Shown here piece by piece: positions 10,276-25,366 of a DNA stretch of 64,000 bases. Below the pieces are notes generated by a model, which saw nothing but the letters and a program-made list of their open reading frames with translations, made no database searches and was not told the DNA's origin. Location: the NCBI GenBank assembly GCA_902788095.1, contig CADAIT010000006.1, positions 62,001-126,000 on the forward strand, written 5' to 3'. Every line of letters starts with the position of its first letter. Position 1 is the first letter of the stretch. The position numbers and the translations under genes were made by a program. The stretch is from an uncultured Bacteroidia bacterium (GTDB taxonomy: Bacteria; Bacteroidota; Bacteroidia; Bacteroidales; UBA932).

Positions 10276-10307
10276 CAAATATAACATTTTCCCCGCACCT
10301 TAGCAAA
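10276..10307 (-). promoter_or_regulatory. promoter of asnS
   Basis: Read on the minus strand, TTTG (10304-10307) and TATATTTG (10276-10283) are separated by exactly 20 nt, the Bacteroidota -33/-7 arrangement. Transcription would begin near 10271, giving a leader of about 20 nt. The -33 element shares bases with the T-tract of the terminator that ends the upstream operon. Confidence 0.7.
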
Positions 10308-10336
10308 AAAAAGGCTCCCTGCTTTTACAGGGAGCC
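10305..10336 (-). terminator. rho-independent terminator of the riboside operon
   Basis: A perfect 9-bp stem (GGCTCCCTG/CAGGGAGCC) with a 6-nt loop is followed on the minus strand by eight T. It lies 22 nt after the stop of the repeat-bearing lipoprotein gene and closes the long leftward operon that starts with ribokinase. Confidence 0.88.
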
Positions 10337-10357
10337 GGAAATGCGTTGAACCGGGGG

Positions 10358-11254
10358 TTACTTTTTAACCTTGATGGTCTTCTTTTCCACGGCGAAGCAA
10401 ACGTCAAAGTCGTAGTCTCCGGCGTAGTATTTAACCTCCTTGACAATGCCACCGGTGGCCTCGTCGTATTCGTACTCGAAGGTAGCTTTGGCGTCGCGGT
10501 CCTGCCATTTGGCCTCGGTGCACACCTTTTCGGAGCTGCGGCCGAACAGACCGGTCTCATAGAGGAAGCGGCTCAGGCCGGCATCTTCGGAATAGGAAGT
10601 GTGGATGTCAGCCACATTGTCCTTGGTGTCGTACTTGTGCTCTTTGAGGCGGCTTCCGTCGCGGCTCCAGGTAAAGACATTCTTGTTTTGGACAACATAG
10701 GAGGTCTTAACCTCTCCGCCAATAGATGCGGTGAGCTGGAAACCGTCGGCGTCGTAGGTGTAGGTCCATACTTCCGCAGGGTCCTTGAGATTGTTGGTGA
10801 ACTGGGTGCAAAGACCTTTGTCGTTCAGCTTGAGGTTGTAGATTACGATGTTCTCATCGGCCTCCGTAGTGACGTCGCAGCTTGTGAAGTCATCGTTGTA
10901 GTCAAACAGATAACCTTTTTCCTTGTCGCCTTTTACGAGAGCGGAGACAATGTGACCGTACTCGTCATAGGAGAGGTCCCAACGGGTTTCGCCAATGCGG
11001 GTAGCCTTCCAGTCATTCTCCTCGGGCCAGTCGCAGATGGCCTCGATGTAAGCGGTCTTGAGGATTACTTCCACATCTTTGTACTCAGTGCCGGGGGTCT
11101 CGCCGCCAGGGGTATTGCCACCAGGAGTCTCACCGCCAGGAGTTTCTCCGCCAGGGGTCTCGCCGCCGGGCTTCACGGTCGGTGCGGGTTTTTCGCAGGA
11201 TGCCATCCCGGCCACCAGCAGGGACGCCATCAGTACATAGAATAACTTTTTCAT
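10358..11254 (-). CDS. lipoprotein with PGGET tandem repeats, unknown function
   Basis: The 298-residue protein begins with a lipoprotein signal (Cys at 20 in GMASCEK). A low-complexity linker of about five PGGETPGG-type repeats follows (residues ~27-58), encoded by a 15-bp tandem repeat at about 11091-11172. The rest (residues ~65-298) is beta-rich and contains repeated short 'YDEYGHIVSALVKGDKEKGY', 'YTYDADGFQLTAS' and 'EYEYDEATGGIVKEV' strands. This pattern is like YD/RHS-type or 'DUF4595-like' beta-sheet proteins of Bacteroidales. It is the last gene of the operon. The flexible linker suggests a surface domain held away from the membrane, possibly a binding protein for the scavenging system; that role is inferred from position only. 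Confidence 0.6.
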   Translation of the reverse strand: MKKLFYVLMASLLVAGMASCEKPAPTVKPGGETPGGETPGGETPGGNTPGGETPGTEYKDVEVILKTAYIEAICDWPEENDWKATRIGETRWDLSYDEYGHIVSALVKGDKEKGYLFDYNDDFTSCDVTTEADENIVIYNLKLNDKGLCTQFTNNLKDPAEVWTYTYDADGFQLTASIGGEVKTSYVVQNKNVFTWSRDGSRLKEHKYDTKDNVADIHTSYSEDAGLSRFLYETGLFGRSSEKVCTEAKWQDRDAKATFEYEYDEATGGIVKEVKYYAGDYDFDVCFAVEKKTIKVKK

Positions 11255-11271
11255 AATAAATAAATTAAGGA

Positions 11272-12807
11272 TTAAAAGTTAAAAAGTGTTTTATTGGTTT
11301 CAATCAGTCTGAGAATATCTTTTTCAGGGTCTTCCGTGGCTTTGGCTACGCGGTATTCGAAGGGGCAGTCTCCAAGTTTGCATGCAGTGTAGAGCGCTCC
11401 CATGTCTTTGTAATTGACGCCGTAATCCGTATTGAGGATAACATAGCTGCAAGTTCTGACCGGAACAATCTCTTCGCCCAGGGAAGCATCGATGAAGCAA
11501 ATTTTGGCGGCCTGTTCCTGAAGGGCGAGGGCTTCTTTTCCCGCCTCGCCGACGGCGACAATCCCCAGTTTAGCCCCGCTAATCCTGGACTGCCAGTCCT
11601 CTTTCCAATCGGCCAGGTTTTTCACGCTTAAATCGCAGGGCAGGAGGGCGTAATTGCCTGCGCCGCGGCTCAGTTCCGCCATCAGGTCTCCAACCCGCTT
11701 GAAGTCTTTGTATGCCACCAGTACAAGGGAACCGCTTTCGGAGAAAGTCTCCGTCCTGTACACACCCTCCCCGTCCAGCGTGATGTCGGGGATGCGGGGT
11801 TCCTCTATCTTGCGTCCCGGCCAGACATCCCCTCCGTTCATGTAGAAAGAGAACATGGTGAGGACTTCATTGAGGGCGTCCATCCAGTATGTGGAGGTGT
11901 GCGCGCCGTTGCCTACACGGTACTCGTGCGCAAAGCCGCGGTCCCGGAGCACGACGTGCAGGGAGTCGTTGGCTATCAGAAGCTGTTCTTCGTCGTCTCC
12001 GCAGGTGAAGTACCATTTCACGCTTTCAAGCGCCTGGCGGTTCTCTTCATTGAAGACATAGTAGGGACAATGCTCCTTGTAGTAGTCCGTGAGCCGGGCT
12101 TCCCCTTTTTCTCCCTTCCCGCCGAACAGCGACCCCCACTGGGTGTTCCATCCGCTGCTGCTTTCCGTCATATACTGCCGGTCCGTGCGGAAAGACATGG
12201 AAAGAGGAGCGCTGCAGAGGAAAACCTCGGGATGTTTCGCGGCAAGGACATAGGCCCCGAAGCCTCCCATGGAGTATCCCGTGACGCAGCGATGCTGCTT
12301 GTCTGGAATCGTACGGAGTGTGGCGTCAATATGCGGGACAAGTTCCTGGACAAACATGTCCATATAGTCAAAGGAATCGTCATACTTATTGACATAGTAG
12401 CACTGGTATCCCATGGGATAAACATATATCATGTCCTCGAGGCCGGCCGACTCAAGGGCCGATATCCGGTCACGGGCGTGGAGCCAGTCTCCGTTCCAGG
12501 AATTCTGGTCGTCTCCGTAGCCGTGCAGCATGTACACGACCGGATAATGCCTGTCCTGGTTGTCATGATAGTCCTTAGGCAGAAGAAGGGAATAACGTAC
12601 GTCCGTGTCCAGAATGGTGCTGGAGAGCACCAAGTCCCTCTGGTAGCGGTCGGGATTGGGGTCCTGCTTACCTTCTTCAGGGTCCGTTTTCTGCTCCTGC
12701 GGGTCTGGCTGCTTTTCCTCCGGCTGCTTCTCCGGTGTCTTGGAGCATCCGTTGGAGGACAGCATGGCCAGCATGCAAACAAACATTATGAAATTACAGT
12801 GAATCAT
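11272..12807 (-). CDS. secreted alpha/beta-hydrolase esterase (CE1/esterase D type) with extra C-terminal domain
   Basis: The protein has about 511 residues and a hydrophobic signal ending near LSSNGCSK, probably a lipoprotein. I use the ATG at 12807, the third in frame. The first two would place a charged stretch before the signal. Residues ~50-310 form an esterase D-like hydrolase: PVVYMLHGYGDDQNSW (oxyanion region), GYSMGGFGAY (nucleophile Ser) and NGAHTSTYWMDAL (catalytic His). Such enzymes cut carboxyl esters from sugars or small thioesters. Residues ~330-511 form a second alpha/beta domain with no motif I recognise. The start overlaps the preceding hydrolase gene by 14 nt, so it is co-translated with the three ADP-ribosylglycohydrolases and may remove ester groups from the same substrate. 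Confidence 0.78.
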   Translation of the reverse strand: MIHCNFIMFVCMLAMLSSNGCSKTPEKQPEEKQPDPQEQKTDPEEGKQDPNPDRYQRDLVLSSTILDTDVRYSLLLPKDYHDNQDRHYPVVYMLHGYGDDQNSWNGDWLHARDRISALESAGLEDMIYVYPMGYQCYYVNKYDDSFDYMDMFVQELVPHIDATLRTIPDKQHRCVTGYSMGGFGAYVLAAKHPEVFLCSAPLSMSFRTDRQYMTESSSGWNTQWGSLFGGKGEKGEARLTDYYKEHCPYYVFNEENRQALESVKWYFTCGDDEEQLLIANDSLHVVLRDRGFAHEYRVGNGAHTSTYWMDALNEVLTMFSFYMNGGDVWPGRKIEEPRIPDITLDGEGVYRTETFSESGSLVLVAYKDFKRVGDLMAELSRGAGNYALLPCDLSVKNLADWKEDWQSRISGAKLGIVAVGEAGKEALALQEQAAKICFIDASLGEEIVPVRTCSYVILNTDYGVNYKDMGALYTACKLGDCPFEYRVAKATEDPEKDILRLIETNKTLFNF

Positions 12808-14293
12808 AGACGACCATTTCTTGTGCATACAGTTCATAATCCGGATGAGGGTTATTCAGACGGAGGGTAAGCGTGTGTTCTCCGCTTTCGAAACAATAAG
12901 AACTGAAAATCTCGTACTTGCGCTTGATGTAGTCAATCGGCATAGTAAAGTGTTCAATTTCTTTTCCGTCCAGAAGGGCCGTAACGGACGCCACATAGCT
13001 GTCATCCGCATGGCCGGTTTTCCGGACGCTGCCTTCCACTACGATGCTGTTTCCTTTGAAGCTAAGGTCCACGGAGGTTGTGAACGCTTTTTTCAGGACC
13101 CGTTTCTCCACGGGCTTGATGCCTTCAAAGCTTTGTTCGTAGCGGACAGGCTGTGGTGTTTCCACATTGAATAAGATGCCGTTTTGGCCTGTTTCGTTGC
13201 ATTTTACAACCAGATTGTAGTTCTCCTGGCAGACCTGTTCCAGACTGAGCGTCGTGTACGGGAAGGGGATATCCTTGATTTTTTCGGCTCCCTTTTTCCA
13301 GTAGTCCGGGATTGCGTCATAACCGTACATGACACCCAGGATGCCCGCCGCCGATGCCGGGTTGCAGTCGGAGTCGTTTCCGCAGCGGGTGGATATGTCC
13401 ATCGTCTTCAGGAAATCCCCCTCTCCGTACAGGAGGCCGATGACCACGAACGCGGAGTTGATGGTGGCGTCGATGTTAAAGCCGTTCCAAACGCCCTCGG
13501 GGCATCCGACGTCGTTGGCATGGCGGTTGGTGACTTCGAACCAGCACTGTTTCCAGTCGTCGGGATACTTCTTCCAGTACTTGATTACATCCGAGATGGT
13601 ATTGTGGAACTTGGTTCCTTCGGGGATGGTCCTGAGGGCTTCGGTCACAAGGGTGGGGATGTCTTGGCACACATAGGCCAGGGCGTACATGGCGCCGATG
13701 TAAACGCCTCCGTACCAGCCGTCTCCGTAATTCATGATGTGGCCGATGCGGTCGCTGAGTTCCGAGGCCTTGTTCACCTGGCCGGGGTAGAGCATGCCGA
13801 TGAAATCGGCCTCGATCTGGAAGTCGATGTCATCTGCATGGGGATTGTACTTCCAGTGCCCGCTTTCCGGGGCGCCGCGCCCGTTGAGGATATTGTAGCG
13901 GGCGGCCTGGTTGGCGTGCCACAACTTGTAGTCGGCATAGGCAAAGGCGTTGGCATAAGACTCCACGGGTGCGTCCAGCCCTTCTTTCAGCATGGTCTCC
14001 ATGAAAGAGAGGTCCATGTAAACGTCGTCGTACAGGCCGGGATCCTCGATGTAGGTATCGTAGATATAGTCATCATACCAGGTGAGGGGAATCTCCTCCA
14101 TGATGAGTCCGCCCTTGTACTTGAACTCCGTAGGACCGCCATAGGTGCAGCCGATGGTCTGTCCGTACCACCCGCCGCGGATTTTGTCCATAAGGCTTGC
14201 CTGGTCCAGGCTCACGGATTGGCCATAAGGTACCTTTGGGGCCTGGGAGCAGGCCGCAAGGAAAACCAGTGATAGGATGAGTAACTTTTTCAT
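12794..14293 (-). CDS. ADP-ribosylglycohydrolase family lipoprotein (third of three)
   Basis: The 499-residue lipoprotein has its Cys at 15 (FLAACSQ). The ATG at 14293 is chosen because the slightly longer frame would need a TTG start. The DraG/ARH fold is visible. DKIRGGWYGQTIGCTYGGPT is the N-terminal metal-site helix, YDDVYMDLSF replaces the usual TDDT, and CGNDSDCNPASAAGILG is the second magnesium-binding block. These residues bind the two metal ions that cleave the N- or O-glycosidic bond to (ADP-)ribose. After ~370 residues a beta domain follows (VDLSFKGNSIVVEGSV and on). As a lipoprotein it acts outside the cytoplasm, unlike DraG. It lies in a run of three paralogous but diverged hydrolases after SusD. 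Confidence 0.85.
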   Translation of the reverse strand: MKKLLILSLVFLAACSQAPKVPYGQSVSLDQASLMDKIRGGWYGQTIGCTYGGPTEFKYKGGLIMEEIPLTWYDDYIYDTYIEDPGLYDDVYMDLSFMETMLKEGLDAPVESYANAFAYADYKLWHANQAARYNILNGRGAPESGHWKYNPHADDIDFQIEADFIGMLYPGQVNKASELSDRIGHIMNYGDGWYGGVYIGAMYALAYVCQDIPTLVTEALRTIPEGTKFHNTISDVIKYWKKYPDDWKQCWFEVTNRHANDVGCPEGVWNGFNIDATINSAFVVIGLLYGEGDFLKTMDISTRCGNDSDCNPASAAGILGVMYGYDAIPDYWKKGAEKIKDIPFPYTTLSLEQVCQENYNLVVKCNETGQNGILFNVETPQPVRYEQSFEGIKPVEKRVLKKAFTTSVDLSFKGNSIVVEGSVRKTGHADDSYVASVTALLDGKEIEHFTMPIDYIKRKYEIFSSYCFESGEHTLTLRLNNPHPDYELYAQEMVVYDSL

Positions 14294-14335
14294 TTCTTTT
14301 TTCAAATCCCTCGGCTATGCCCGGGATGACGGTAA

Positions 14336-15946
14336 TCAGTTGTGATAGTAAGTGTCCGTATTGGGCTTGCTGCCGTAGTATTCTATTGCGTTTATCCTGA
14401 GCAGATAGGTGTCAGGCTTGGGATTGCGCCAGATGAGCTTGACATGGTGGCGACCTTCTTCCATCCCGTACTTCCATGCGGGTTCCAGTTTGCGCGACGT
14501 TCCCTTCATGGGGAGGATGGACACCTGGTCCAGGACGCCGTCAATCCACACCTCGATTTCGGCCACATACGGGTCGTCTTCTTCGGCCATGGCAAAGACC
14601 TCGGAGCCGACATGTTTCTTGGCGACGCGCTGGGCGTAGTCTTCGGTGATGCCTCTCAGGCACACGAGGTTGCCCCAAATCACGAAGCCGTTGCCGGAGA
14701 AGTCAAACTCATAGACATCCTTCAGCCAGGCGTCTTTCTGGTCGCGCATCAGCGGATAAGTGTCCACAAAATTCTGCTCCAGGGGAAGAACTTTCGGTTT
14801 GGAGATGGGAATGACAACCTCGTTTTCACGTACTTCTCCGCCGTTTTTCGCGATGAGCTGCAGGGCGTGGTTGAAGGAATACTGACTGCCCTTCGAAAGG
14901 GAGACGTCCGTGCCTTCAAAGTCCAGGTCCCAGATTTCCATCACCGGCTTGCGCCAGAATTCCGGGATGTTCTCAAGGCCATAGACCACGCCGAGAACGC
15001 CGCCGACGGTTGCCGGGTTGCAGTCGGAATCCTGACCGCAGCGGGTGGCAATCTCCATGGATTTTCCAAAGTCTCCGTCACCGTACAGCATGCCGATGGT
15101 AACATAGGCGCTGTTGAGTTTCGCGTCGATGTCAAAACTCAGGCCGACGCCTTTGGGGCAGCCGGTGTCCGCACCCCACTTTTTCAGGACCTCGAACCAG
15201 GTGGCTTTCCAGTCCGAGGGGTATTTCCTGTGCCACTGGCGTACGTCGTTGATGCACTGCCAGAAAGTGCTCTCGTGGGGAATTGCCTCAAGGGCCATGT
15301 CCACAATTTTTGCAGGATTGTTCTCCACGAAGGCCGCGCTGTACAGGCCTGCAACGTATGCTCCGCCGTAGAATCCGTCACCGCTGTTCATGATGTGGCC
15401 CACCCTGTCCGCTATATCGAGCGCCTCGGGGAGCATGCCGGGGGCCATCAGTCCGACGAAATCGGCCTCAATCTGGAAATCAAGGTCATCGGCGTGGGGG
15501 TTGTTGAGCCAGTTGCCGCTTTCCGGAGGCATGATGCCCTGGCGGACATTGTACCTTCCCGCCTGGTTGGCATGGGCCAGGTGGTAAGGAGCATACGCGA
15601 AACGCATGGCCAGGTCCTTGGCCGATGCATCCAGCCCCAGCTCTTCGAAGGCCTCGGCAAAAGTGAGGTCGTTGTAAACATCGTCAAAGAGGCCGGGTTT
15701 GCGGTCCCACCAGTGTTTCACGTAGCCGTCGCCCCAGCCGATGGGAATCTCTTCCGGGATGATGGTGCCGCAGAACTTGAACTCCGTGGGAGCGCCGTAC
15801 ACTACGCCGATGGTCTGGCCGGCCCATCCGCCCTTGATTTTGTCCATCAGGGCGTCTTTCGAAAGGGTCGCTTCCGTTTTTTCGGGCGCGGTGGCGCAGG
15901 CCGAAAGCAGGAGGACAGCTGCCAGTACGAGACTATTCCGCTTCAT
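14336..15946 (-). CDS. ADP-ribosylglycohydrolase family lipoprotein (second of three)
   Basis: The 536-residue lipoprotein has its Cys at 17 (LLSACAT). It shares the layout of the next gene: DKIKGGWAGQTIGVVYGAPTEF, then LFDDVYNDLTFAEAFEELG, then CGQDSDCNPATVGGVLGVVYG. The acidic metal ligands of the family are kept. Residues ~400-536 form a C-terminal beta domain (FDFSGNGFVIWGNLVCLRG) related to the one in the neighbour. Its start overlaps the end of the first hydrolase gene by 14 nt, so translation is coupled. It is probably a periplasmic or surface hydrolase of riboside bonds. It differs enough from its two neighbours to suggest a different substrate rather than a recent duplicate. Confidence 0.87.
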   Translation of the reverse strand: MKRNSLVLAAVLLLSACATAPEKTEATLSKDALMDKIKGGWAGQTIGVVYGAPTEFKFCGTIIPEEIPIGWGDGYVKHWWDRKPGLFDDVYNDLTFAEAFEELGLDASAKDLAMRFAYAPYHLAHANQAGRYNVRQGIMPPESGNWLNNPHADDLDFQIEADFVGLMAPGMLPEALDIADRVGHIMNSGDGFYGGAYVAGLYSAAFVENNPAKIVDMALEAIPHESTFWQCINDVRQWHRKYPSDWKATWFEVLKKWGADTGCPKGVGLSFDIDAKLNSAYVTIGMLYGDGDFGKSMEIATRCGQDSDCNPATVGGVLGVVYGLENIPEFWRKPVMEIWDLDFEGTDVSLSKGSQYSFNHALQLIAKNGGEVRENEVVIPISKPKVLPLEQNFVDTYPLMRDQKDAWLKDVYEFDFSGNGFVIWGNLVCLRGITEDYAQRVAKKHVGSEVFAMAEEDDPYVAEIEVWIDGVLDQVSILPMKGTSRKLEPAWKYGMEEGRHHVKLIWRNPKPDTYLLRINAIEYYGSKPNTDTYYHN

Positions 15947-17702
15947 AAACCTTGAGTTCCGTTATTGAAATGAAGGCCGACACCGCCTTGGTGTACTTGT
16001 GCCAGTGAATGAGGACGGCATCGTCTCCGATGATGCGCACGGCCGTTGTCGTAACCTTGGGGAAGGTGAAGACAAACTCGGCATTGTGCGGCTGGAAAAA
16101 GACTTCGTCCGAGTAGGGAAGAGAGGGCGTGACAGTGGCTTCTATCGGCACCCAGTTGCCGTTTTCGTCCAGATATTCCGGGTGCATGTTGCTATACCAT
16201 CCGCCGAATTCCTCCAGCGGACCATAGTGGAAGGAAATCATGTCCGTCGTTACGGGCTGGCTCCAGCGATAGCCGAAGTAGTCCTGCTTGGGCGCGTTGG
16301 ATTTTTCTCCAAGCGAGTAGAAGGCCGCTCCGGGGCCGCTCTCTACGCCGTCGTTGATGACATCCACGGTGTAGGCACGATAGGAAACGGGAATGGTGAG
16401 CCAGCAGGAATCCAGCGTGGCGCGGTCCGTCTCACGGGTGGCGGCAAGGATTTCCACCGCTTCGGGGGCGATGTTGCGGCCGTGGGGAGCGGGAAGCTCA
16501 AACAGGGCGGCAGGTTCCTTGGCCGGCGTGAAGCGGGCCTTGCGGTTGATGGTGTAGATTTTCTCTCCGTTTTCCTCGCGAACTTTGCCGCCACGGGCCA
16601 GGATGTTCTTTTCGGCAAGGACGACGGTGCGCTCGATGAGGTCCTCGATGGAGGCGTCGGGCATGTCGTAGCGGGTTACGTTGATGTAACGGTCGTTGAA
16701 GGGCTTGGTCCAGTGTTCAAAAGGCATGGCACGGTCCAGCGGAACGCATTCCACCCCGTTGATGACCCCCAGCAGTCCGCACATGGTGGCGGTCTGGTTG
16801 TCACAGTCGAAGCCCAGCGCACAGCCGATGGAAAGGGTCTTTTCCATGTCGCCGTCGCCATACAGAAGGGACAGGATGCCCATGGCGCCGTTCAGGTCCG
16901 CGTTCCAGATGCTCTTGGAAAGGTCGTCTTCGTTGAAATAGAGTTCATCGGCGATGACCTTTCTGGAAGCCTTCCAGTCCTGGGGATTCTTCTTCCAGAG
17001 CTCCAGGCATTCGTCTATGATGCCCCTGAAGCGGTCCTTTTCGGGGAGATACTCCTTGGCGTTGCGAATGAGGGTGGGGATGTCCTTCTCGAAGAAGGCT
17101 TCGGCGTACATGGCACCGTACACGACGGTAGGGGACACGGCCCAGTCGTCGGAGGTGATACGGGCCGCCCAGTCGGAAATGCCGGCCGCATAGTCGGGCA
17201 TGCCGGGGGCGGTGTAGGCCCAAATCTCGTTAATGAGCTGAGGGTCAATTTGGAACCAGTGCGGATTGTACTCCTTCTTGCCCGTGAGGGGCGGCGTGAA
17301 ACCGTAGTGCATCAGGCCCAGGGCGGCGCGGTTTGCCAGCCACACCCTGTCACGGATGTGATACATCCAGTGGTCACGGACCTGGGCATAAGTGGGATCC
17401 ACTCCGTTTTTCTCCATCATCAGGAGGTAGAGGTATTCGACATCGGTGTCATCGTCCGAGAAGGCGCCGTCCACGGCCTCCATTTTGCGCATGGCCTTGT
17501 TGAAGACAAAGGGGCCTTCACCGGGTTCGTCCACAAACTTGTTCTCATACTCAAGTCCGTAGATGTTGCCTACCATCTGGCCAATCCAGGCGCCGGCAAT
17601 CTTGTCCTTGAGCTGCGTGCGGGTAATTTCCAACGGCTTCTGCGCGCAGGATGCGGCAAGAAGGAGGATCGCTGCTGACAGTATTATTGATAACTTTTTC
17701 AT
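15933..17702 (-). CDS. ADP-ribosylglycohydrolase family lipoprotein (first of three)
   Basis: The 589-residue lipoprotein starts MKKLSIILSAAILLLAASC (Cys 19). A longer open frame exists, but its first 40 codons read like SusD C-terminal sequence out of frame, and the ATG here overlaps the SusD stop as ATGA. The family blocks are KDKIAGAWIGQMVGNIYG, FSDDDTDVEYLYLL (close to the canonical TDDT) and ALGFDCDNQTATMCGLLG. The C-terminal ~190 residues include a beta domain with WSQPVTTDMISFHYGPLEE, which resembles a small binding module. It is the most diverged of the three hydrolases and the first to be translated after SusD. A surface glycan-cleaving or ADP-ribose-removing role is inference. Confidence 0.87.
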   Translation of the reverse strand: MKKLSIILSAAILLLAASCAQKPLEITRTQLKDKIAGAWIGQMVGNIYGLEYENKFVDEPGEGPFVFNKAMRKMEAVDGAFSDDDTDVEYLYLLMMEKNGVDPTYAQVRDHWMYHIRDRVWLANRAALGLMHYGFTPPLTGKKEYNPHWFQIDPQLINEIWAYTAPGMPDYAAGISDWAARITSDDWAVSPTVVYGAMYAEAFFEKDIPTLIRNAKEYLPEKDRFRGIIDECLELWKKNPQDWKASRKVIADELYFNEDDLSKSIWNADLNGAMGILSLLYGDGDMEKTLSIGCALGFDCDNQTATMCGLLGVINGVECVPLDRAMPFEHWTKPFNDRYINVTRYDMPDASIEDLIERTVVLAEKNILARGGKVREENGEKIYTINRKARFTPAKEPAALFELPAPHGRNIAPEAVEILAATRETDRATLDSCWLTIPVSYRAYTVDVINDGVESGPGAAFYSLGEKSNAPKQDYFGYRWSQPVTTDMISFHYGPLEEFGGWYSNMHPEYLDENGNWVPIEATVTPSLPYSDEVFFQPHNAEFVFTFPKVTTTAVRIIGDDAVLIHWHKYTKAVSAFISITELKVYEAE

Positions 17703-19279: not shown

Positions 19280-19291
19280 GGTAATCTCACA

Positions 19292-22201
19292 TTAGAAGGT
19301 TATTGAAGCGCCCAGTGTGAAACTTCTGGTACGGGGATAGTAGCTGAGCGGAGCAATGCCCGGTGCCAGGCCGGAGAGTGAGACCTCGGGGTCAACGCCG
19401 GTATAGCCGGTGAGGACAAATACATTCTGGGCGGTTGCATAGACGCGAATTCCCTTTACATATTTGTTTTCCAGAGGAATGCTGTAGGTGAGGGAGATGT
19501 TGTCGAGCTTCAGGTACGTGGCGTCTTCCAGATATTTGGAAGAGTAAACCACGCCGCCGGTATAATCCTGGTCGTACAGCCAGGATTCCTGGATGTTCTG
19601 GAGGCCCATGTTGGTGATGTTTTCATACACGCCCCGCATCTGGTTGAGCACCTTTCCGCCGATAGCGGCGCGGAAAGTGGCGCTGAGAGAAAGGTTTTTC
19701 CAGGAAACGCTGTTGCTCCAGCCGAGGTTGAAGTCCGGGTAGGCGCTTCCGAGCCATTTCCACTCGTTTTCGTCGTCGGTGGAGACCATGGCGTTGCCGG
19801 TTTCTTTGTCCGTGCCCAGGAATTCGGGGCCATAGAAACTGCCGAGGCTCTTTCCTTCTTCAAGGCGCTGGGTATAGACGCCCAGCGGGGTGTTCACCCA
19901 GCCGATCCTGTACTCCTGTCCCTGGAACTCCTCGTTGGTGAACTTGATGAGTTTGTTGGCGTTTTTGGAGAAGATGAGGGTGGTGTTCCATTCCCAGTCG
20001 TTGGTTTTGACGGGGATGGCATTGATGGTGACCTCTATACCGCTGTTGCTGATGGCGCCTACGTTGGTAAAGAACGATTTGTAGTCGTACGGGGGCACGG
20101 GAACGGCATAGTCATAGAGCAGGTCCGTGGTCAAACGGTAATAGTAGTCGATGGTACCGCCGAGACGGCCCTTGAGCACGCTCCAGTCTATACCAATATT
20201 GAATTCCGACTTCTTTTCCCATCCGAGGTCGGGGTTGGCGTTGCTGGCGGGAACGTAGGTGTTGTACCACTTGCCGTTTGAGTAAAAGAGCCCGCTGGTG
20301 GCCATCAGGAACAGTGACCTGTAGTTGTCGAAGTCCTGGTTTCCGGTCACGCCGTAACCGGCACGCAGCTTCAGTTCCTCAAGCCATGAGACATTTTTCA
20401 TGAAATTTTCCTGGGTGATGCGCCAGCCGAGGCTTACGGCGGGGAACCAACCCCACTTGTGCTGGGAACCAAAGCGGGAAGAACCGTCCCTTCTGAGGGA
20501 AACGGAAGCCAGGTACTTGTCACCATAGTTATACATGACGCGGCCGAAGAAAGCGATGTACCTGCTGTCCGACCTGTAAGAACTCATATCGGCCATGCCG
20601 TCTTTAAGGGCGTATCCGGAACCGATATTGTCCGTTCCGAAGTAATCCGTATCAAAACTGTAGTTGTACTGGTAGGCGCTGCGGTATCCGCGCGTCTGGT
20701 AAGTATAGCCCAGGATACCCTGCACATTGTGCTTCCCGAAGCTGTTGTTGTAGCTGATGGTGGACTCATACTGGAGATCGGTCGAGGAGGCATTCTCAAT
20801 TTCGGCCGAACCCATCATGCCGGTTTCTCCGGGATAGAAGCGGGTTTTGTAGTCACGGCTTTCCCTGCGGGTGATGCCGTAGCTGATGAAGTTGTCCCAT
20901 TTGAGGCCCTTCACGGGCAGGATGTTAAGGGTTGCACGGCCGTTTACGCCGACCATGTCAACGACGGTTTCGCCGTTTCTCTCGTTGAGCATGGCCACGG
21001 GGTTGTAGTAGTCCATGGCCGTGACGGTGAAGTATCCGCCGTGTTCCTTGTCGTCGGGGTCCAGAACGGCTTCCGTGGGGTTATGGATGAATGCCTGACG
21101 GAAGATGCCGGAGCGGGTTCCGTTGTATTTGCGTTTGGCGTAGCTGAGGTTGTAGTCGAAGGTAAGCCATCCCTGCAGCGCTTCCTGACGGATATTGGTC
21201 TTGATCAGGTATTTGCTTGCATCGTTCTTGCGGAGGATACCCTGGTTCTGTTCGACATTCAGGACCGTACGGTGGGAGAATTTCTCTGAGCCGCCTGCAA
21301 TGGCAAGGCTGTGCTTGTGGCTGATGGGGACACGGGTAACCTGCTCGAACCAGTCCGTGTCCGAGCCGTACAGGTATGCCTCACCGCCGTTGACATAGGC
21401 GGTCACGGCGTCCTTGAACTGGCTGGCGTTCATCGGCTTGGCCCTTGAGAGGACGGTCTGGACGGAAACCTGGCCGTCATACTCCACGCTGGTTTTGCCG
21501 GAGCGTGCACGCTTTGTGTTGATGATGATGACGCCGTTGGTGCCGCGGGTGCCGTAAATGGCGGCGGCGGAACCGTCCTTCAAGACATCCATGGACTCCA
21601 CTTCCTGGAAGTTGATGGAGCTGAGGTCGGCATCTACGACACCGTCAATGATGATGAGGGGGCCCTGCCCTGCACTGAGGGTATTGGTGCCTCGGAGCAG
21701 AATTTCAAAGGAACCGTTCGGGTCTCCGCCGTTGGGGTTGGTAATCTGCAGACCGGCGACCTTGCCCTGAAGCATGCCTGCGGGGCTGTTGAAGGCACCC
21801 TTGTCAAAGTCTTCGCTGCGGAGGCTGGTGACCGAGCCGGTGACTTCCTTCTTGGTGGTGGTACCGTAACCGATGGCTACGGATTCGTTGAGCATGGTCG
21901 CCTCGGAGGGACTCATGGAAATATTGTACTGTGCGGCTCCCGTTACGGTGAACAGATAGTCGTCATATCCCAGATAGGAAACCGTAATTTCCTGCCCCTG
22001 GCGTACGGACATGGAGAATTTTCCGTTGGCATCCGTGATGGCGTACGCCTGGCTTCCGGCAGCGACCAGGGTTGCTCCGGGAAGGGGTTCGGAACGTTCA
22101 TCCCGAACAGTGCCGGAGATGGTCTTGTTCTGTGCGAATGCGGTGATGCCGGCCAGAAGGAGGACGGCGGCTGCAATCGTCATTTTCTTAATTGTAATCA
22201 T
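19292..22201 (-). CDS. SusC-family TonB-dependent outer-membrane transporter
   Basis: The 969-residue protein has a signal peptide ending at FAQ (residue ~24). A carboxypeptidase-regulatory-like domain follows (ISGTVRDERSEPLPGATLVA, ~28-105), then the TonB box region and plug (ESVAIGYGTTTKKEVTGSV, then LLRGTNTLSAGQGPLIIIDG). The remainder is a large barrel ending in SFTLGASITF with the terminal Phe. It imports oligomeric substrates using TonB/ExbBD energy. It pairs with the SusD gene downstream and lies 13 nt after the permease gene. It is rather short for a SusC, similar to receptors for small substrates such as nucleosides or oligosaccharides. Confidence 0.96.
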   Translation of the reverse strand: MITIKKMTIAAAVLLLAGITAFAQNKTISGTVRDERSEPLPGATLVAAGSQAYAITDANGKFSMSVRQGQEITVSYLGYDDYLFTVTGAAQYNISMSPSEATMLNESVAIGYGTTTKKEVTGSVTSLRSEDFDKGAFNSPAGMLQGKVAGLQITNPNGGDPNGSFEILLRGTNTLSAGQGPLIIIDGVVDADLSSINFQEVESMDVLKDGSAAAIYGTRGTNGVIIINTKRARSGKTSVEYDGQVSVQTVLSRAKPMNASQFKDAVTAYVNGGEAYLYGSDTDWFEQVTRVPISHKHSLAIAGGSEKFSHRTVLNVEQNQGILRKNDASKYLIKTNIRQEALQGWLTFDYNLSYAKRKYNGTRSGIFRQAFIHNPTEAVLDPDDKEHGGYFTVTAMDYYNPVAMLNERNGETVVDMVGVNGRATLNILPVKGLKWDNFISYGITRRESRDYKTRFYPGETGMMGSAEIENASSTDLQYESTISYNNSFGKHNVQGILGYTYQTRGYRSAYQYNYSFDTDYFGTDNIGSGYALKDGMADMSSYRSDSRYIAFFGRVMYNYGDKYLASVSLRRDGSSRFGSQHKWGWFPAVSLGWRITQENFMKNVSWLEELKLRAGYGVTGNQDFDNYRSLFLMATSGLFYSNGKWYNTYVPASNANPDLGWEKKSEFNIGIDWSVLKGRLGGTIDYYYRLTTDLLYDYAVPVPPYDYKSFFTNVGAISNSGIEVTINAIPVKTNDWEWNTTLIFSKNANKLIKFTNEEFQGQEYRIGWVNTPLGVYTQRLEEGKSLGSFYGPEFLGTDKETGNAMVSTDDENEWKWLGSAYPDFNLGWSNSVSWKNLSLSATFRAAIGGKVLNQMRGVYENITNMGLQNIQESWLYDQDYTGGVVYSSKYLEDATYLKLDNISLTYSIPLENKYVKGIRVYATAQNVFVLTGYTGVDPEVSLSGLAPGIAPLSYYPRTRSFTLGASITF

Positions 22202-22214
22202 AACCAGTTGTGAA

Positions 22215-23228
22215 TTACATTCCTGCTACAACAATACATGACAGTCCGGCCACGAAGAGGGCGAACATGAGGGCCAGAAGGCTATAGACATTCTTCGAGG
22301 CGCCTTTGAATTCCTTCCAGATGAATACGCCCCAGATAGCTGCAATCATGGGTGCGCCCTGGCCAAGTGCATAGGAAACGGCTGCGCCTGCTTCACCTGC
22401 GCTGATGTAGTTGAGAGATGTACCCAGGGCCCAGATGGCGCCGCCGAGCATGCCTACGAGGTGCGTTTTGAAGTTGCCCTTGAAATACTGGGCGTAGGTG
22501 ACTGGCTCTCCCACGAAGGGTTTCTTCATCACGATGGTGTTCACGACGAAGTTGCTGAGAACCACGCCCAGGGCAAAGATGACCATGGCGGTGTAGGGGG
22601 TGAGCTTGCCGGCTGCGGGGTGATGGAAATCGGCCAGGTCCACGCCGTTGTAAACGAGCGCGGAGAAGAAGGACATCACAAGGCCGGCGATGACGGCCAG
22701 GATGACGCCCTTGCGGTTCTGTTTGGGGTCACGCTGCTCGTTGGAAACCTTGCCGGAAGCGATGCCGTTGCATACGACGGCCGCCACCACGAGGGCGACG
22801 CCCAGCCAGAGAAGGCCGGTATTCTGCCCTTCCGTGGGGTGCAGAAGCAAGTTGTTCAATACGCCCATCACCAGTGCGATGCCTACGCCAAGCGGGAAGG
22901 CTACGGCCATGCCGGCAATGGAGGTGGAGGCGGAAAGCAGAATGTTGGATACATTGAACACCACAGCGCCGAGGAGCACCCATCCGATGCTGGACCAGTC
23001 GGCCTGCGCAAGGTCCTGAAGGAAGGGCCGTCCCTCTGTGCCGATACTGCCGGCCGTGAAGGCCAGGAGCAGGGAGAAGAGGAGCATGCCGATGACATAG
23101 TCCCAATAGAAAAGCTCATAGCGCCAGCTCTTTGCCGCGAGTTTCTGGGTGTTTCCCCATGAGCCCCAGCAGAGCATTGTGATAAAGCAGAAAATTACTG
23201 CGAGAGAGTAACTGCCAACGATGAACAT
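22215..23228 (-). CDS. inner-membrane sugar permease of the DMT/GRP-RhaT type (putative ribose transporter)
   Basis: The 337-residue protein has about ten hydrophobic segments (for example LAVIFCFITMLCWGSWGNTQ, VIGMLLFSLLLAF, and VYSLLALMFALFVAGLSCIV at the end). The N-terminal 'CWGSWGNTQK' and the GQGAPMIAAIWGVFIWKEFKG block are typical of the glucose/ribose porter and rhamnose-transporter branch of the drug/metabolite superfamily. It lies directly between ribokinase and susC, so it most likely brings the released pentose across the inner membrane for phosphorylation. The substrate is inferred from the neighbour kinase, not from residues. Confidence 0.82.
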   Translation of the reverse strand: MFIVGSYSLAVIFCFITMLCWGSWGNTQKLAAKSWRYELFYWDYVIGMLLFSLLLAFTAGSIGTEGRPFLQDLAQADWSSIGWVLLGAVVFNVSNILLSASTSIAGMAVAFPLGVGIALVMGVLNNLLLHPTEGQNTGLLWLGVALVVAAVVCNGIASGKVSNEQRDPKQNRKGVILAVIAGLVMSFFSALVYNGVDLADFHHPAAGKLTPYTAMVIFALGVVLSNFVVNTIVMKKPFVGEPVTYAQYFKGNFKTHLVGMLGGAIWALGTSLNYISAGEAGAAVSYALGQGAPMIAAIWGVFIWKEFKGASKNVYSLLALMFALFVAGLSCIVVAGM

Positions 23229-23239
23229 AGTCTTATAAT

Positions 23240-24145
23240 TTAAATGTTAATATCTTTACGGAAAGGGATGGAGTTCTGCGCGCCCATCTTTTGTACGGTG
23301 AGGGCCGATGCCGCCGTCGCGAACTCCGTGGCTTCCTTGAGGGATTTGCCCTCGGAGATGGCGACGCAAAGAGCCCCGCAGAAGGTGTCTCCTGCCGCCG
23401 TCGTGTCCACGGCCTTTACTTTGTGCGCCGGTACGAAGACTTCCGGACCGCCGTCGCAGATGAGGGCCCCTCGGCTTCCCATGGTGACGATAATTTTGCC
23501 TACGCCCTTGCTCTGCATGGCAGCGGCGGCCTGCCGGGCCTGGGCGGCGTCCGTTACGGGCAAGCCGCTGAAGGTGGAGAGTTCCGTCTCGTTCGGGATG
23601 AACAGGTCAACATAACGGAACAGCTCTTCCGGGAGCGGGCAGGCGGGTGCGGGATTCAGCACCACCATCGCTCCGGCCTCGTGTGCCATTTTGGCCGCTT
23701 TGAGAACCGACGGGATGGGGATTTCCAGCTGAAGCAGCAGAATGCCGCAATGCGCGATGGCCTCCCGGGATGCGTCGATGTCGGCCTCGGACAGGTCTCC
23801 GTTTGCGCCCGATGCAACCACAATGCAGTTTTCGGCGCTGTCATCGACATAAATCAGGGCGACACCGGAAGGAAGGGAAGAGCGGAGGACGCCGGACACA
23901 TCCAGCCCTTCCGCCTTATACTGGGCGACGGCGTTGTCGCCGAACATATCCCGGCCCACTTTGCAGATGAATTGCACGTCTCCGCCCAGCCTCTGTGCGG
24001 CGACAGCCTGGTTGGCGCCTTTTCCGCCGGCCCCCATGGTGAATACGCCCCCCAATACGGTTTCCCCGGGACGGGGAAGGGAGTGCGTTTTGGCAGTCAT
24101 GTCGGTATTGCTGCTACCGATGACAAGGATTCTTTTCTTGGTCAT
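23240..24145 (-). CDS. rbsK: ribokinase
   Basis: The 301-residue PfkB-family sugar kinase has the size of ribokinase, which converts D-ribose and ATP to ribose-5-phosphate. The motifs are complete. GSSNTDMTAKTHSLPRPGET is the N-terminal substrate region, GAGGKGANQAVAAQRLGG is the first PfkB signature, and DTTAAGDTFCGAL is the C-terminal signature with the catalytic Asp and anion hole. The residues match ribokinase better than fructokinase or adenosine kinase. It is the first gene of the leftward operon, next to the promoter and twin operators, so it gives the whole locus its likely end product. Confidence 0.93.
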   Translation of the reverse strand: MTKKRILVIGSSNTDMTAKTHSLPRPGETVLGGVFTMGAGGKGANQAVAAQRLGGDVQFICKVGRDMFGDNAVAQYKAEGLDVSGVLRSSLPSGVALIYVDDSAENCIVVASGANGDLSEADIDASREAIAHCGILLLQLEIPIPSVLKAAKMAHEAGAMVVLNPAPACPLPEELFRYVDLFIPNETELSTFSGLPVTDAAQARQAAAAMQSKGVGKIIVTMGSRGALICDGGPEVFVPAHKVKAVDTTAAGDTFCGALCVAISEGKSLKEATEFATAASALTVQKMGAQNSIPFRKDINI

Positions 24146-24174
24146 ATCCTTGGTTTTAGTGTCTTAATTATACT

Positions 24175-24192
24175 TGCGCAATCGATTGTGCA
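24175..24192. promoter_or_regulatory. LacI-type operator 1
   Basis: TGCGCAATCGATTGTGCA is an almost perfect 18-bp palindrome centred at 24183/24184, with the central C-G step of LacI-family sites. It lies in the leader, ~30 nt before the ribokinase start, and shares its 14-bp core with the second site 73 bp away. Confidence 0.8.
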
Positions 24193-24248
24193 GTCATTTG
24201 CGCCGTTAAGAGGGTGGTGAAAGGCTTATGTTTCAGTGGGTCCTCTTA

Positions 24249-24266
24249 ATGCAATCGATTGTGCAA
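24249..24266. promoter_or_regulatory. LacI-type operator 2
   Basis: ATGCAATCGATTGTGCAA has the same CAATCGATTG core as operator 1 and is centred at 24256/24257. It begins right after the predicted operon start site, so a bound repressor would block initiation or escape. The two centres are 73 bp apart, close to seven helical turns, which places both sites on the same DNA face. Confidence 0.8.
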
Positions 24267-24273
24267 CTCGTGA

Positions 24274-24303
24274 CAAATATAAGCAATATTTTTAATTATC
24301 AAA
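24274..24303 (-). promoter_or_regulatory. promoter of the riboside operon
   Basis: On the minus strand TTTG (24300-24303), 18 nt and TATATTTG (24274-24281) form a Bacteroidota-type promoter. The predicted start, about 24268, abuts operator 2. The leader to the ribokinase ATG would be ~120 nt and contains operator 1. Confidence 0.7.
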
Positions 24304-24311
24304 CATATTAA

Positions 24312-24342
24312 TTGATTTTTTTTTGCTTTTATCGTATCTTTG
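24312..24342 (+). promoter_or_regulatory. promoter of the LacI-type regulator gene
   Basis: TTG (24312-24314), 20 nt and TATCTTTG (24335-24342) match the Bacteroidota consensus, 16 nt before the regulator start codon. It is divergent from the operon promoter; the two -33 elements are only ~10 bp apart. Confidence 0.7.
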
Positions 24343-24358
24343 CCACTGCAACTTTAGT

Positions 24359-25366
24359 ATGATGGAAAAAAATAATATCTTTTCTATCTCCGAGCATACA
24401 GGTTATTCTGCATCCACGGTTTCGCGTGTGCTTTCCGGTAAAGCGCAGAAGTACCGTATCAGCCAAAAAGCCGTTTCCATCATTACCCAGGAGGCGGAAC
24501 GTTGCCATTATCGGCCCAATCTTTTGGCGCAGAGCCTCCGTACCCGGAAGACGCATACCATCGGCCTGCTTGTGCCCGGCATCGAAAATCCCTTTTTCTC
24601 CAATCTTGCCGCCATACTCATCAATTTGCTCGACGCACGCGGATACCGGACGATACTGGCCGACTCCCGCGAGTCTGCCGATGAAGAACTGCAGGAACTG
24701 GAAATGTTGCAGCGCGGGGGAGTGGACGGAATTATCTGTGTTCCGGTTTCCGAGTCTCCGGAGGTGCATGAAAAGGTATCCGTGCAGATTCCGATGGTCC
24801 TGATAGACCGTTATTTCAGAGATACGACGCTGCCTTATGTCTGCACCGACAATTATACCGGCGCCAAAATGGCTGCCGAACTTTTGCTGAAAAAAGAGTA
24901 CAAGTGCATACTGGCGATTCAGGGTGTGCCGGGTTCCATCCCCAACCAGGAGCGTGTGAGCGGTTTTGTGGATACGCTGGAAGGACATCATATAGACTTT
25001 GACATCGTCGGCAATGCCTTTTCCATCGAGAACGGTTACCGTGAAACATGCCGTGCCTTCGGCAAAAAGAAGTACGATGCCGTTTTTGCGTTCAGCGCCA
25101 CCATTCTGCTGGGTGTCCTCAAAGCGCTTCGGGAGCGCAACCGGCAAATCGGAAAGGACGTGGGCGTGGTCTCTTACGACAATAACGGTTTCCTCGAATT
25201 CATGGAACCGGCCATTACCTGCATCGAGCAGCCCCTGAGAGAGAACGCGGAGCTGGCGGTAGCGTCGCTGTTCTCCATCATCGAGGCCCGTAACCAGGGC
25301 GCCCCCGATCCGGAAATCCTTCAGCAGCTGATGCCGCCTCTCTTAATAGAAAGGGACAGCTGTTAA
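24359..25366 (+). CDS. LacI-family transcriptional regulator of the riboside operon
   Basis: The protein has about 335 residues. The frame could start further upstream, but the ATG pair at 24359/24362 lies just after a good -7 box and directly before the DNA-binding domain. The helix-turn-helix (ISEHTGYSASTVSRVLSGK) and hinge region (YRPNLLAQSLRTRKTHTIGL) are typical. The remainder is a periplasmic-binding-protein-like effector domain (TIGLLVPGIENPFFSNLAAIL, VLIDRYF, GVVSYDNNGFLEFMEPAIT). It is transcribed away from the ribokinase operon, with two matching LacI palindromes between them, so it very probably represses that operon until a ribose-related inducer binds. Confidence 0.93.
   Translation: MMEKNNIFSISEHTGYSASTVSRVLSGKAQKYRISQKAVSIITQEAERCHYRPNLLAQSLRTRKTHTIGLLVPGIENPFFSNLAAILINLLDARGYRTILADSRESADEELQELEMLQRGGVDGIICVPVSESPEVHEKVSVQIPMVLIDRYFRDTTLPYVCTDNYTGAKMAAELLLKKEYKCILAIQGVPGSIPNQERVSGFVDTLEGHHIDFDIVGNAFSIENGYRETCRAFGKKKYDAVFAFSATILLGVLKALRERNRQIGKDVGVVSYDNNGFLEFMEPAITCIEQPLRENAELAVASLFSIIEARNQGAPDPEILQQLMPPLLIERDSC

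What the first reader, a model, noticed from the sequence alone, without database searches (positions are those of the whole stretch)
10305..25366. Candidate ADP-ribose/riboside scavenging locus with three different secreted ADP-ribosylglycohydrolases
Nine genes run in one direction from a LacI-controlled promoter to a terminator: ribokinase, sugar permease, SusC, SusD, three diverged lipoproteins of the ADP-ribosylglycohydrolase family, an esterase and a repeat-linked lipoprotein. Known: ADP-ribosylglycohydrolases free ADP-ribose or ribose-type groups, ribokinase uses ribose, and Bacteroides ribose-utilization (rus) loci combine SusC/D, permease and kinases. What is unusual here is the trio of outside-facing family members, each with its metal motifs and a different C-terminal beta domain, plus an esterase. 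Inference: the cell strips ribose from a complex substrate (poly- or mono-ADP-ribosylated protein, NAD-derived material, acylated ADP-ribose or another riboside).
Basis: partly seen in the sequence, partly recalled or inferred. Interest (0 to 1): 0.88.

Follow-up and report, generated by a model that had tools for sequence, protein, structure and literature searches.

The report
Ribose-scavenging locus with three paralogous glycosidases
A gene cluster in a Bacteroidales bacterium appears to import a ribose-bearing compound, strip ribose from it with three related secreted enzymes, and feed the ribose into metabolism; the same cluster is conserved in many related bacteria, but what it actually eats is unknown and it need not be ADP-ribose.

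Summary
The locus is real and well described: nine tightly packed genes (24145 to 10358, minus strand), a divergent LacI gene, a terminator-like hairpin, and a conserved LacI-type operator that I located. It is not a one-off. The set SusC, SusD, ADPRG1-3, esterase recurs across Bacteroidales (Bacteroides xylanisolvens XB1A, Alistipes, Hallella, Cryptobacteroides, Paludibacter, Draconibacterium); 77 of the 80 best loci of one scan have all three ADPRGs, and the other three are cut there by contig ends. Each paralogue forms its own group in a tree, so the trio is old and kept together. Ribokinase and a DMT-type permease tie it to ribose, as in the published B. thetaiotaomicron ribose-utilisation system (RUS). 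The ADP-ribose part is not supported: the enzymes keep the catalytic Glu and metal-binding Asp pairs of the ARH/DraG fold but have lost most of the usual Thr/Ser ligands; ADPRG2/3 carry a C-terminal domain with a weak carbohydrate-binding-module match; the operon holds no nucleosidase, phosphatase or pyrophosphatase. They lack surface-export signals, so they are probably periplasmic, not outside-facing. Best reading: a RUS-type locus that imports an esterified riboside, probably a glycan, and cleaves it in the periplasm. New variant of a known kind; substrate untested.

The parts
24323..25366 (+). LacI-family repressor gene, divergent from the operon (ORF opens with TTG; a later ATG is the likelier start)
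   Evidence: PF13407/PF13377/PF00532 above cut-off; the LacI helix-turn-helix model itself scores 21.2, below its cut-off 27; best NCBIfam relatives are RbsR-, FruR- and UriR-type regulators, all below their cut-offs
24176..24191 (.). LacI-type operator GCRCAAWCGWTTGYGC, exact; second copy with 2 mismatches at 24249-24264
   Evidence: Pattern with at most 0/1/2 mismatches in 26/33/36 of 41 intergenic regions (window plus 40 named loci) against shuffled means 0.00/0.02/0.02; only these two sites in the 64 kb window at up to 2 mismatches, 0.32 expected
23240..24145 (-). ribokinase (RbsK)
   Evidence: TIGR02152 equivalog 362 bits, above cut-off; PRK11142 340.1 bits, just below its 341; closest solved chains are ribokinases; motifs GSSNTD, GGKGAN, AVDTTAAGD present
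22215..23228 (-). inner-membrane DMT-type sugar permease, RusT-like
   Evidence: PF07168 85.5 bits, PF06800 and PF07857 above cut-offs; a ribokinase-like gene within 8 kb in 28 of 43 permease rows
19292..22201 (-). SusC-type TonB-dependent transporter
   Evidence: TIGR04056 714 bits, cut-off 368
17699..19279 (-). SusD-type lipoprotein
   Evidence: PF07980 and PF14322 above cut-off; SusD copies carry the acidic surface-export signal after the lipobox Cys
15933..17702 (-). ADPRG1: PF03747 lipoprotein with its own C-terminal domain; overlaps the SusD stop by 4 bp
   Evidence: PF03747 103 bits; E53, D83-D85, D299, D301 invariant in 9 of 9 orthologs; one group in the tree
14336..15946 (-). ADPRG2: PF03747 lipoprotein with a weakly CBM-like C-terminal domain
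   Evidence: PF03747 133 bits; AlphaFold2 model mean pLDDT 90.9; ARH/DraG fold and weak CBM36 match
12794..14293 (-). ADPRG3: PF03747 lipoprotein, same domain layout as ADPRG2 (ORF opens with TTG at 14305; ATG at 14293 is the likelier start)
   Evidence: PF03747 136 bits; 43% identical to ADPRG2; C-terminal domain homologous to that of ADPRG2
11272..12837 (-). CE1-like serine esterase
   Evidence: PF00756 78 bits; nearest solved chains annotated ferulic acid esterase, E 8e-34; GYSMG nucleophile motif
10358..11254 (-). DUF4595-like lipoprotein on a GGETP-repeat linker; possible surface binding protein
   Evidence: PF15283 E 1.2e-6, 29.1 bits, below cut-off 34.2; tblastn match in 55 of 80 loci
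10313..10336 (-). intrinsic-terminator-like hairpin
   Evidence: 10-bp stem with 7 G-C pairs followed by T8

Best explanation
A RUS-type ribose acquisition locus. A LacI repressor binding GCRCAAWCGWTTGYGC holds the operon off until an inducer, probably ribose or a ribose derivative, appears (operator shown by conservation; inducer inferred). SusC/SusD take a ribose-bearing compound across the outer membrane (inferred from family). The esterase removes acyl groups (inferred). The three PF03747 enzymes, anchored or soluble in the periplasm, act as metal-dependent glycosidases on different ribosyl linkages of that compound, most likely alpha-ribofuranosides in a glycan or glycoconjugate, and free ribose (inferred). 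The DMT permease brings ribose in and ribokinase makes ribose-5-phosphate (supported by family). The ADP-ribosylglycohydrolase name describes the fold; ADP-ribose is not the likely substrate.
For: Ribokinase equivalog above cut-off. In 295 sampled genomes of the order (own genome included), 26 of the 32 with an ADPRG2-like hit also have the permease, against 10 of 263 without (overlap tallied by hand; Fisher p 1.4e-23, kinship and genome size not corrected). 77 of 80 best loci hold all three ADPRGs and 57 of 80 hold all eight core genes (presence in the locus). A1, A2 and A3 are each one group over Bacteroidaceae, Prevotellaceae, Rikenellaceae, Paludibacteraceae and Prolixibacteraceae. Operator conserved. 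The only permease hit of B. xylanisolvens XB1A (E 1e-20 or better) and all three of its PF03747 hits lie in its copy of this locus. Two or more acidic residues at +2..+6 after the lipobox Cys: ADPRG1 0/48, ADPRG2 2/63, ADPRG3-like 2/75, SusD 57/57; no lipobox in the B. xylanisolvens and Hallella seregens copies of the trio (by eye). Weak CBM36 match of the C-terminal domain. Of the neighbours of single relatives that I picked for Pfam, some are NH, GH78 and GH106 rhamnosidases, AXE1, SASA, sulfatase, GH31 and GH38.
Against: No activity or expression data. The CBM36 match is weak (E 6e-3). Alpha-riboside glycans are not a known common food (recalled). Many single ADPRG relatives have no ribokinase or permease nearby, several of the neighbours I tested had no glycan-related family, and three distant ADPRG1 homologs overlap an upstream gene that in the two tested is alpha-amylase-like, so the released sugar may differ in other contexts. 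Two cassettes (L196, L197) have other genes where the kinase should be, and L184 has no permease match. The B. thetaiotaomicron RUS carries a nucleoside hydrolase; this one does not.
Confidence: 0.55

Rival explanations
1. ADP-ribose scavenging: the trio cleaves poly- or mono-ADP-ribose, ADP-ribosylated protein or O-acetyl-ADP-ribose, and the ribose is used.
For: All three match PF03747 far above cut-off; the ADPRG2 model matches ARH3, DraG and ARH1; the catalytic-type Glu and both Asp pairs are invariant; the esterase could remove acyl groups; the own genome has one 5'-nucleotidase C-terminal domain (PF02872) protein elsewhere.
Against: In 39 sequences of the ADPRG2/3 type, TDDT and DxD[ST] read [YFQ]DD[VIL] and D[SA]D[C] (one S), and the D of GDxxG reads Q or K, while two other PF03747 proteins of the same genome keep SDDT/TDDS and GD. 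None of the operon genes is a Nudix hydrolase, phosphatase or nucleosidase. No PF01156 hit in the own genome (83% complete). NCBIfam ADP-ribosylarginine hydrolase scores 15.3 and 18.1 bits against 490.
Confidence: 0.15
2. The trio acts on a glycan whose main product is not ribose (another furanose or pentose); ribokinase and permease handle a minor or related sugar.
For: ADPRG relatives occur beside GH106 (L048), GH31 (L158) and GH38 (L160) genes with no ribokinase-like gene within 8 kb; distant ADPRG1 homologs overlap an alpha-amylase-family gene in two tested cases.
Against: Ribokinase is an equivalog-level match in the window and a ribokinase match is in 65 of 80 cassette loci. The GH78/AXE1/sulfatase neighbourhood (L042) does have ribokinase and permease.
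Confidence: 0.17
3. A nucleoside or NAD-derived riboside route, with PF03747 enzymes replacing nucleoside hydrolase for alpha-anomeric ribosides such as alpha-ribazole or alpha-NAD.
For: In 8 of 18 permease rows with an ADPRG within 8 kb, a nucleoside-hydrolase-like gene is also there (by BLAST or motif). The B. thetaiotaomicron RUS itself pairs SusC/D with a nucleoside hydrolase.
Against: No match to four nucleoside hydrolase queries in 77 of 80 cassette loci; the esterases and the CBM-like domain are not explained by it.
Confidence: 0.1

Closest known systems
Ribose utilisation system (RUS, BT2803-BT2809) of Bacteroides thetaiotaomicron, Glowacki et al. 2020
   Same: Ribokinase, DMT-type permease, SusC, SusD and hydrolases in one locus (gene content from a table row of PMC10434189; RusR regulon and ribose response from passages of PMC12596196).
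   Different: Three PF03747 enzymes and esterase instead of nucleoside hydrolase and the DUF4969 protein; LacI instead of RusR. I could not read Glowacki et al. (not held); I recall, unverified, that it reports RUS variants with ADP-ribosylglycohydrolases.
ARH/DraG ADP-ribosyl hydrolases (PF03747)
   Same: Family match, fold, catalytic-type Glu, Asp pairs.
   Different: Secreted, extra C-terminal domain, altered Thr/Ser ligands and GD motif, genetic context of a SusC/D locus.
CE1 feruloyl-type esterases
   Same: Nearest solved chains to the esterase are 7xrt/7xrv, annotated ferulic acid esterase.
   Different: Extra C-terminal region of about 190 aa beyond the Pfam match; substrate untested.

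Membership tests
RUS-type ribose utilisation locus | ribokinase | tested here: met
   TIGR02152 above cut-off
RUS-type ribose utilisation locus | RusT-type DMT permease in the locus | tested here: inconclusive
   DMT-type permease present, but BT2809 itself was not available for comparison
RUS-type ribose utilisation locus | SusC/SusD pair | tested here: met
RUS-type ribose utilisation locus | nucleoside hydrolase (B. thetaiotaomicron form) | tested here: not met
   none in the operon; no PF01156 in the own genome, 83% complete
RUS-type ribose utilisation locus | RusR regulator | tested here: inconclusive
   A LacI gene stands beside the operon, but RusR itself was not available and was not searched for in the genome; in L237 and other cassettes a divergent protein of about 500 aa stands there, without Pfam match in L237
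RUS-type ribose utilisation locus | induction by ribose | not testable with these tools
   needs expression data
ARH/DraG ADP-ribosyl hydrolases | PF03747 domain above gathering score | tested here: met
   103-136 bits, cut-off 26.2
ARH/DraG ADP-ribosyl hydrolases | all-helical ARH fold | tested here: met
   ADPRG2 model only: ARH3, DraG, Thermus ADPRG, TMt up to 0.74; the ADPRG1 model was too poor to use (pLDDT 48.9); ADPRG3 not modelled
ARH/DraG ADP-ribosyl hydrolases | catalytic Glu and metal-binding Asp pairs | tested here: met
   invariant in 39 of 39 and 9 of 9; role of the residues recalled
ARH/DraG ADP-ribosyl hydrolases | Thr/Ser metal ligands (TDDT, DxD[ST]) | tested here: not met
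   [YFQ]DD[VIL] in 39 of 39 and DxDC in 38 of 39 for the ADPRG2/3 type; ADPRG1 has SDDDT but DxDN, 9 of 9
ARH/DraG ADP-ribosyl hydrolases | hydrolysis of ADP-ribosyl bonds | not testable with these tools
   needs an assay
Tri1 ADP-ribosylarginine hydrolase (NF041672) | score above the equivalog cut-off | tested here: not met
   15.3 and 18.1 bits (ADPRG3, ADPRG2) against 490; ADPRG1 no match

The most novel reading that the evidence does not exclude
A widespread branch of the ADP-ribosylglycohydrolase fold has been turned into periplasmic glycan-active glycosidases (probably alpha-ribofuranosidases), and an old three-enzyme set of them, kept together across Bacteroidales families, breaks down a common but unrecognised ester-substituted, ribose-containing polymer in gut, rumen and sediment.
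Probability: 0.35. Interest if true: 0.78.

Novelty: new variant of a known kind. Interest (0 to 1): 0.52.

Why it matters
If right, the label 'ADP-ribosylglycohydrolase' is misleading for many secreted Bacteroidales proteins: they would be glycosidases of a new activity, and the locus would be a genetic handle on a ribose-bearing substrate for which gut and rumen bacteria have kept a dedicated three-enzyme pathway. The test is direct, because a named strain with a complete genome (B. xylanisolvens XB1A) has the locus as its only hit for both the permease and the PF03747 family.

Tried and rejected
Chance clustering of unrelated genes: rejected; gene content and order are conserved across families. 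Recent duplication within one genome: rejected; each paralogue is its own group. Surface-exposed hydrolases: disfavoured on signal evidence (the acidic surface-export rule is recalled). Inactive relatives: unlikely, since catalytic-type Glu and Asp residues are invariant.

Led nowhere: viral-contig scan with the permease (no relative); the ADPRG1 structure model (pLDDT 48.9) was not searched; the listings of paper searches showed no paper evidently on this locus ('ribofuranosidase': 0 papers; library limited to open licences), and the two papers opened mention the RUS paper only in their reference lists. One search was wasted by a wrong year bound. Mapping the locus to B. xylanisolvens PUL 18 (BXY_19520-19610, 'unknown substrate', repressed on pectins; passages of PMC4769552) failed: a hand interpolation from my own assignment of GH10 and GH32 hits to published tags gives about BXY_19190, so identity is neither shown nor excluded.

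One search counts presence in a locus, not order; there L180 and L196 are printed with ADPRG3 before ADPRG2, while the frame map shows 1-2-3 for both, and in L174 the kinase match is on the other strand. The operator pattern was derived from the same regions it was counted in; five of the 41 (L179, L198, L199, L231, L232) have no match within two mismatches. The Fisher test ignores kinship and genome size. Lipobox counts use only proteins in which my pattern found a lipobox (57 of 76 SusD, 48 of 85 ADPRG1, 63 of 80 ADPRG2, 75 of 109 ADPRG3-like, single relatives included); esterases were mixed (16 of 61 with two or more acidic residues). The 20 neighbours given to Pfam were picked by me. The tree used the quick method with 84 chosen rows; four rows have long branches (two canonical proteins, L162, L163), and the program warns that L163 may be joined to the ADPRG1 group falsely; groups are sides of a branch in an unrooted tree, and horizontal transfer is not excluded.
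Full report
WHAT IS THERE. Nine genes on the minus strand run from 24145 to 10358: ribokinase, DMT-type permease, SusC, SusD, three PF03747 proteins (called here ADPRG1, 2, 3 in gene order), a PF00756 esterase and a DUF4595-like lipoprotein on a GGETP-repeat linker. Neighbouring genes overlap or lie within 30 bp. A LacI-family gene diverges at 24323, and a terminator-like hairpin with T8 lies at 10336-10313. ADPRG3 probably starts at the ATG at 14293 rather than the TTG at 14305.

REGULATION. The gap between LacI and ribokinase holds a palindromic LacI-type site, GCACAATCGATTGCGC at 24191-24176, and a copy with two mismatches at 24264-24249. The pattern GCRCAAWCGWTTGYGC occurs exactly in 26, and with at most one mismatch in 33, of 41 such gaps (window plus 40 named loci with divergent LacI and ribokinase), against 0.00 and 0.02 in shuffles; five of the 41, Hallella multisaccharivorax among them, have no match within two mismatches. 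The two window sites are the only ones in the 64 kb at up to two mismatches, with 0.32 expected. The pattern was read off the same data, but exact matches occur in B. xylanisolvens (L222), Alistipes (L219, L224) and Hallella seregens (L227).

CONSERVATION. By tblastn, ADPRG1 is in 79, ADPRG2 in 80 and ADPRG3 in 78 of the 80; all three in 77. The three loci that miss one (L182, L187, L203) are cut at that point by a contig end. All eight core genes (kinase, permease, SusC, SusD, trio, esterase) are present in 57 of 80; many of the misses are on short or cut contigs. Departures exist: L196 and L197 have other genes where the kinase should be, and L184 has no permease match. The permease sits after the kinase or at the 3' end, depending on lineage. 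Hosts by record title include B. xylanisolvens XB1A, Alistipes senegalensis, Hallella seregens and H. multisaccharivorax, Candidatus Cryptobacteroides, Paludibacter and Draconibacterium. Among 295 sampled genomes of the order, seven carry the trio (G000, G057, G079, G092, G155, G203, G307, by my reading of the places). In 395 genomes of the phylum, an ADPRG1 match of 48% identity or more outside the own genome was seen only in three genomes of one genus. In a tree of 84 rows, A1, A2 and A3 each form one group (support 96, 100, 97; 19 rows each). So the trio is old and its members are probably not interchangeable.

LINK TO RIBOSE. The kinase passes the ribokinase equivalog cut-off of TIGR02152. 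In the order sample 36 genomes have the permease and 32 have an ADPRG2-like protein; 26 have both (my tally; Fisher p 1.4e-23, kinship and genome size ignored). Of 43 permease rows in the 73 regions mapped, 28 have a ribokinase-like gene, 18 a PF03747 protein and 11 a nucleoside-hydrolase-like gene (BLAST or motif) within 8 kb; 8 have both of the last two. In B. xylanisolvens XB1A the only permease hit, and all three PF03747 hits, lie in this locus. The published B. thetaiotaomicron RUS has ribokinase, SusC, SusD, a DUF4969 protein, a nucleoside hydrolase and a DMT permease (a table row of PMC10434189 and passages of PMC12596196). The architecture is therefore RUS-like, with different hydrolases.

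THE THREE ENZYMES. The ADPRG2 model (39 sequences, mean pLDDT 90.9) has 37 solved chains at E 1e-3 or better. They include ARH3, DraG, ARH1, Tri1 and Thermus ADPRG structures (TMt up to 0.74, Thermus), and two chains of chloroplast FtsHi motor complexes, one of which ranks first. Below these come, weakly, CBM36 and carbohydrate-esterase accessory domains among other matches (E 6e-3 and worse). The catalytic-type Glu and both Asp pairs are invariant in 39 of 39 ADPRG2/3-type and 9 of 9 ADPRG1 sequences. Yet the Thr/Ser positions of TDDT and DxD[ST] are [YFQ], [VIL] and Cys (38 of 39) in the ADPRG2/3 type, and Asn after DxD in ADPRG1, which keeps an SDDDT run. The two other PF03747 proteins of the same genome have GD, SDDT/TDDS and DSDS/DSDT. 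So the trio belongs to the fold but to a divergent branch. A profile of the ADPRG2/3 type reaches only two solved sequences, weakly (6dre and 1t5j); a profile of ADPRG1 reaches none.

WHERE THEY ACT. After the lipobox Cys, SusD carries two or more acidic residues in 57 of 57 cases, but ADPRG1 in 0 of 48, ADPRG2 in 2 of 63 and ADPRG3-like in 2 of 75 (proteins without a recognised lipobox left out). In B. xylanisolvens and Hallella seregens the trio's N-terminal sequences look like signal peptides without a lipobox (by eye). By the surface-export rule for Bacteroidota lipoproteins (recalled), the trio faces the periplasm. SusC/D would then import the substrate before the trio acts.

SUBSTRATE. 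Against ADP-ribose: no operon gene could take ADP-ribose to ribose by family; the own genome (83% complete) has no PF01156 nucleoside hydrolase and one PF02872 5'-nucleotidase-type protein elsewhere (Nudix not searched); the active-site ligands are altered. For a glycan: the weakly CBM-like domain; esterases whose nearest solved relatives are annotated feruloyl esterases; a Na+/anion symporter gene (PF00939) close downstream in L039, with relatives in five of the 80 named loci, which might take up a released acid; single relatives beside a GH78 rhamnosidase, AXE1 and a sulfatase (L042, with ribokinase and permease), or beside GH106 and SASA (L048), GH31 (L158) and GH38 (L160) without them. Against certainty: other tested neighbours had no glycan-related family (TPR protein and two without match in L155, DUF4434 in L151), and distant ADPRG1 homologs in three genomes of one genus overlap an upstream gene that is alpha-amylase-like in the two tested, with GH77 nearby in one, so the family may handle other sugars. 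ARH enzymes cut alpha-ribosyl bonds (recalled), so alpha-ribofuranosides are the first candidates.

JUDGEMENT. Observation confirmed. Interpretation partly supported: ribose scavenging yes, ADP-ribose not supported, outside-facing disfavoured. Novelty: a variant of the RUS kind. I recall without being able to check that the RUS paper mentions ADP-ribosylglycohydrolases in some loci, which would lower novelty further. The open and testable point is the substrate.

Noticed in passing
L253:4488-6359, L254:9329-11242, L255:8775-10646: ADPRG1 homologs (39-42% over about 600 aa) in three genomes of one genus outside the class overlap the end of an upstream gene by a few bases; in L254 and L255 that gene is alpha-amylase/CBM48-type (GlgB-like) by Pfam, and GH77 lies nearby in L254.
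   Followed up: partly
L228, L229, L237-L239, L241, L242 (upstream of ribokinase): Where LacI is missing, a divergent protein of about 500-550 aa stands in its place; the L237 example, like one in L120, has no Pfam match. Possibly RusR-like, not checked.
   Followed up: partly
L039:1710-3197 and five of the 80 named loci: A PF00939/DASS-type symporter follows the cassette in some lineages, perhaps for an acid released by the esterases.
   Followed up: partly
window 8205-8837: Uridine kinase family gene (PF00485) downstream of the operon; a gene with a very similar start also follows the cassette in L164.
   Followed up: no
L131:873-4205: Several short frames with a repeated peptide (SIPLWFDWE and similar), as a CRISPR-like DNA repeat would give.
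   Followed up: no
L126:104-9201: Permease, a 25%-identical ADPRG, ribokinase and three nucleoside-hydrolase-like genes in one run.
   Followed up: no
window 28433-29464: Asparaginase (PF00710 and PF17763) gene outside the finding.
   Followed up: no
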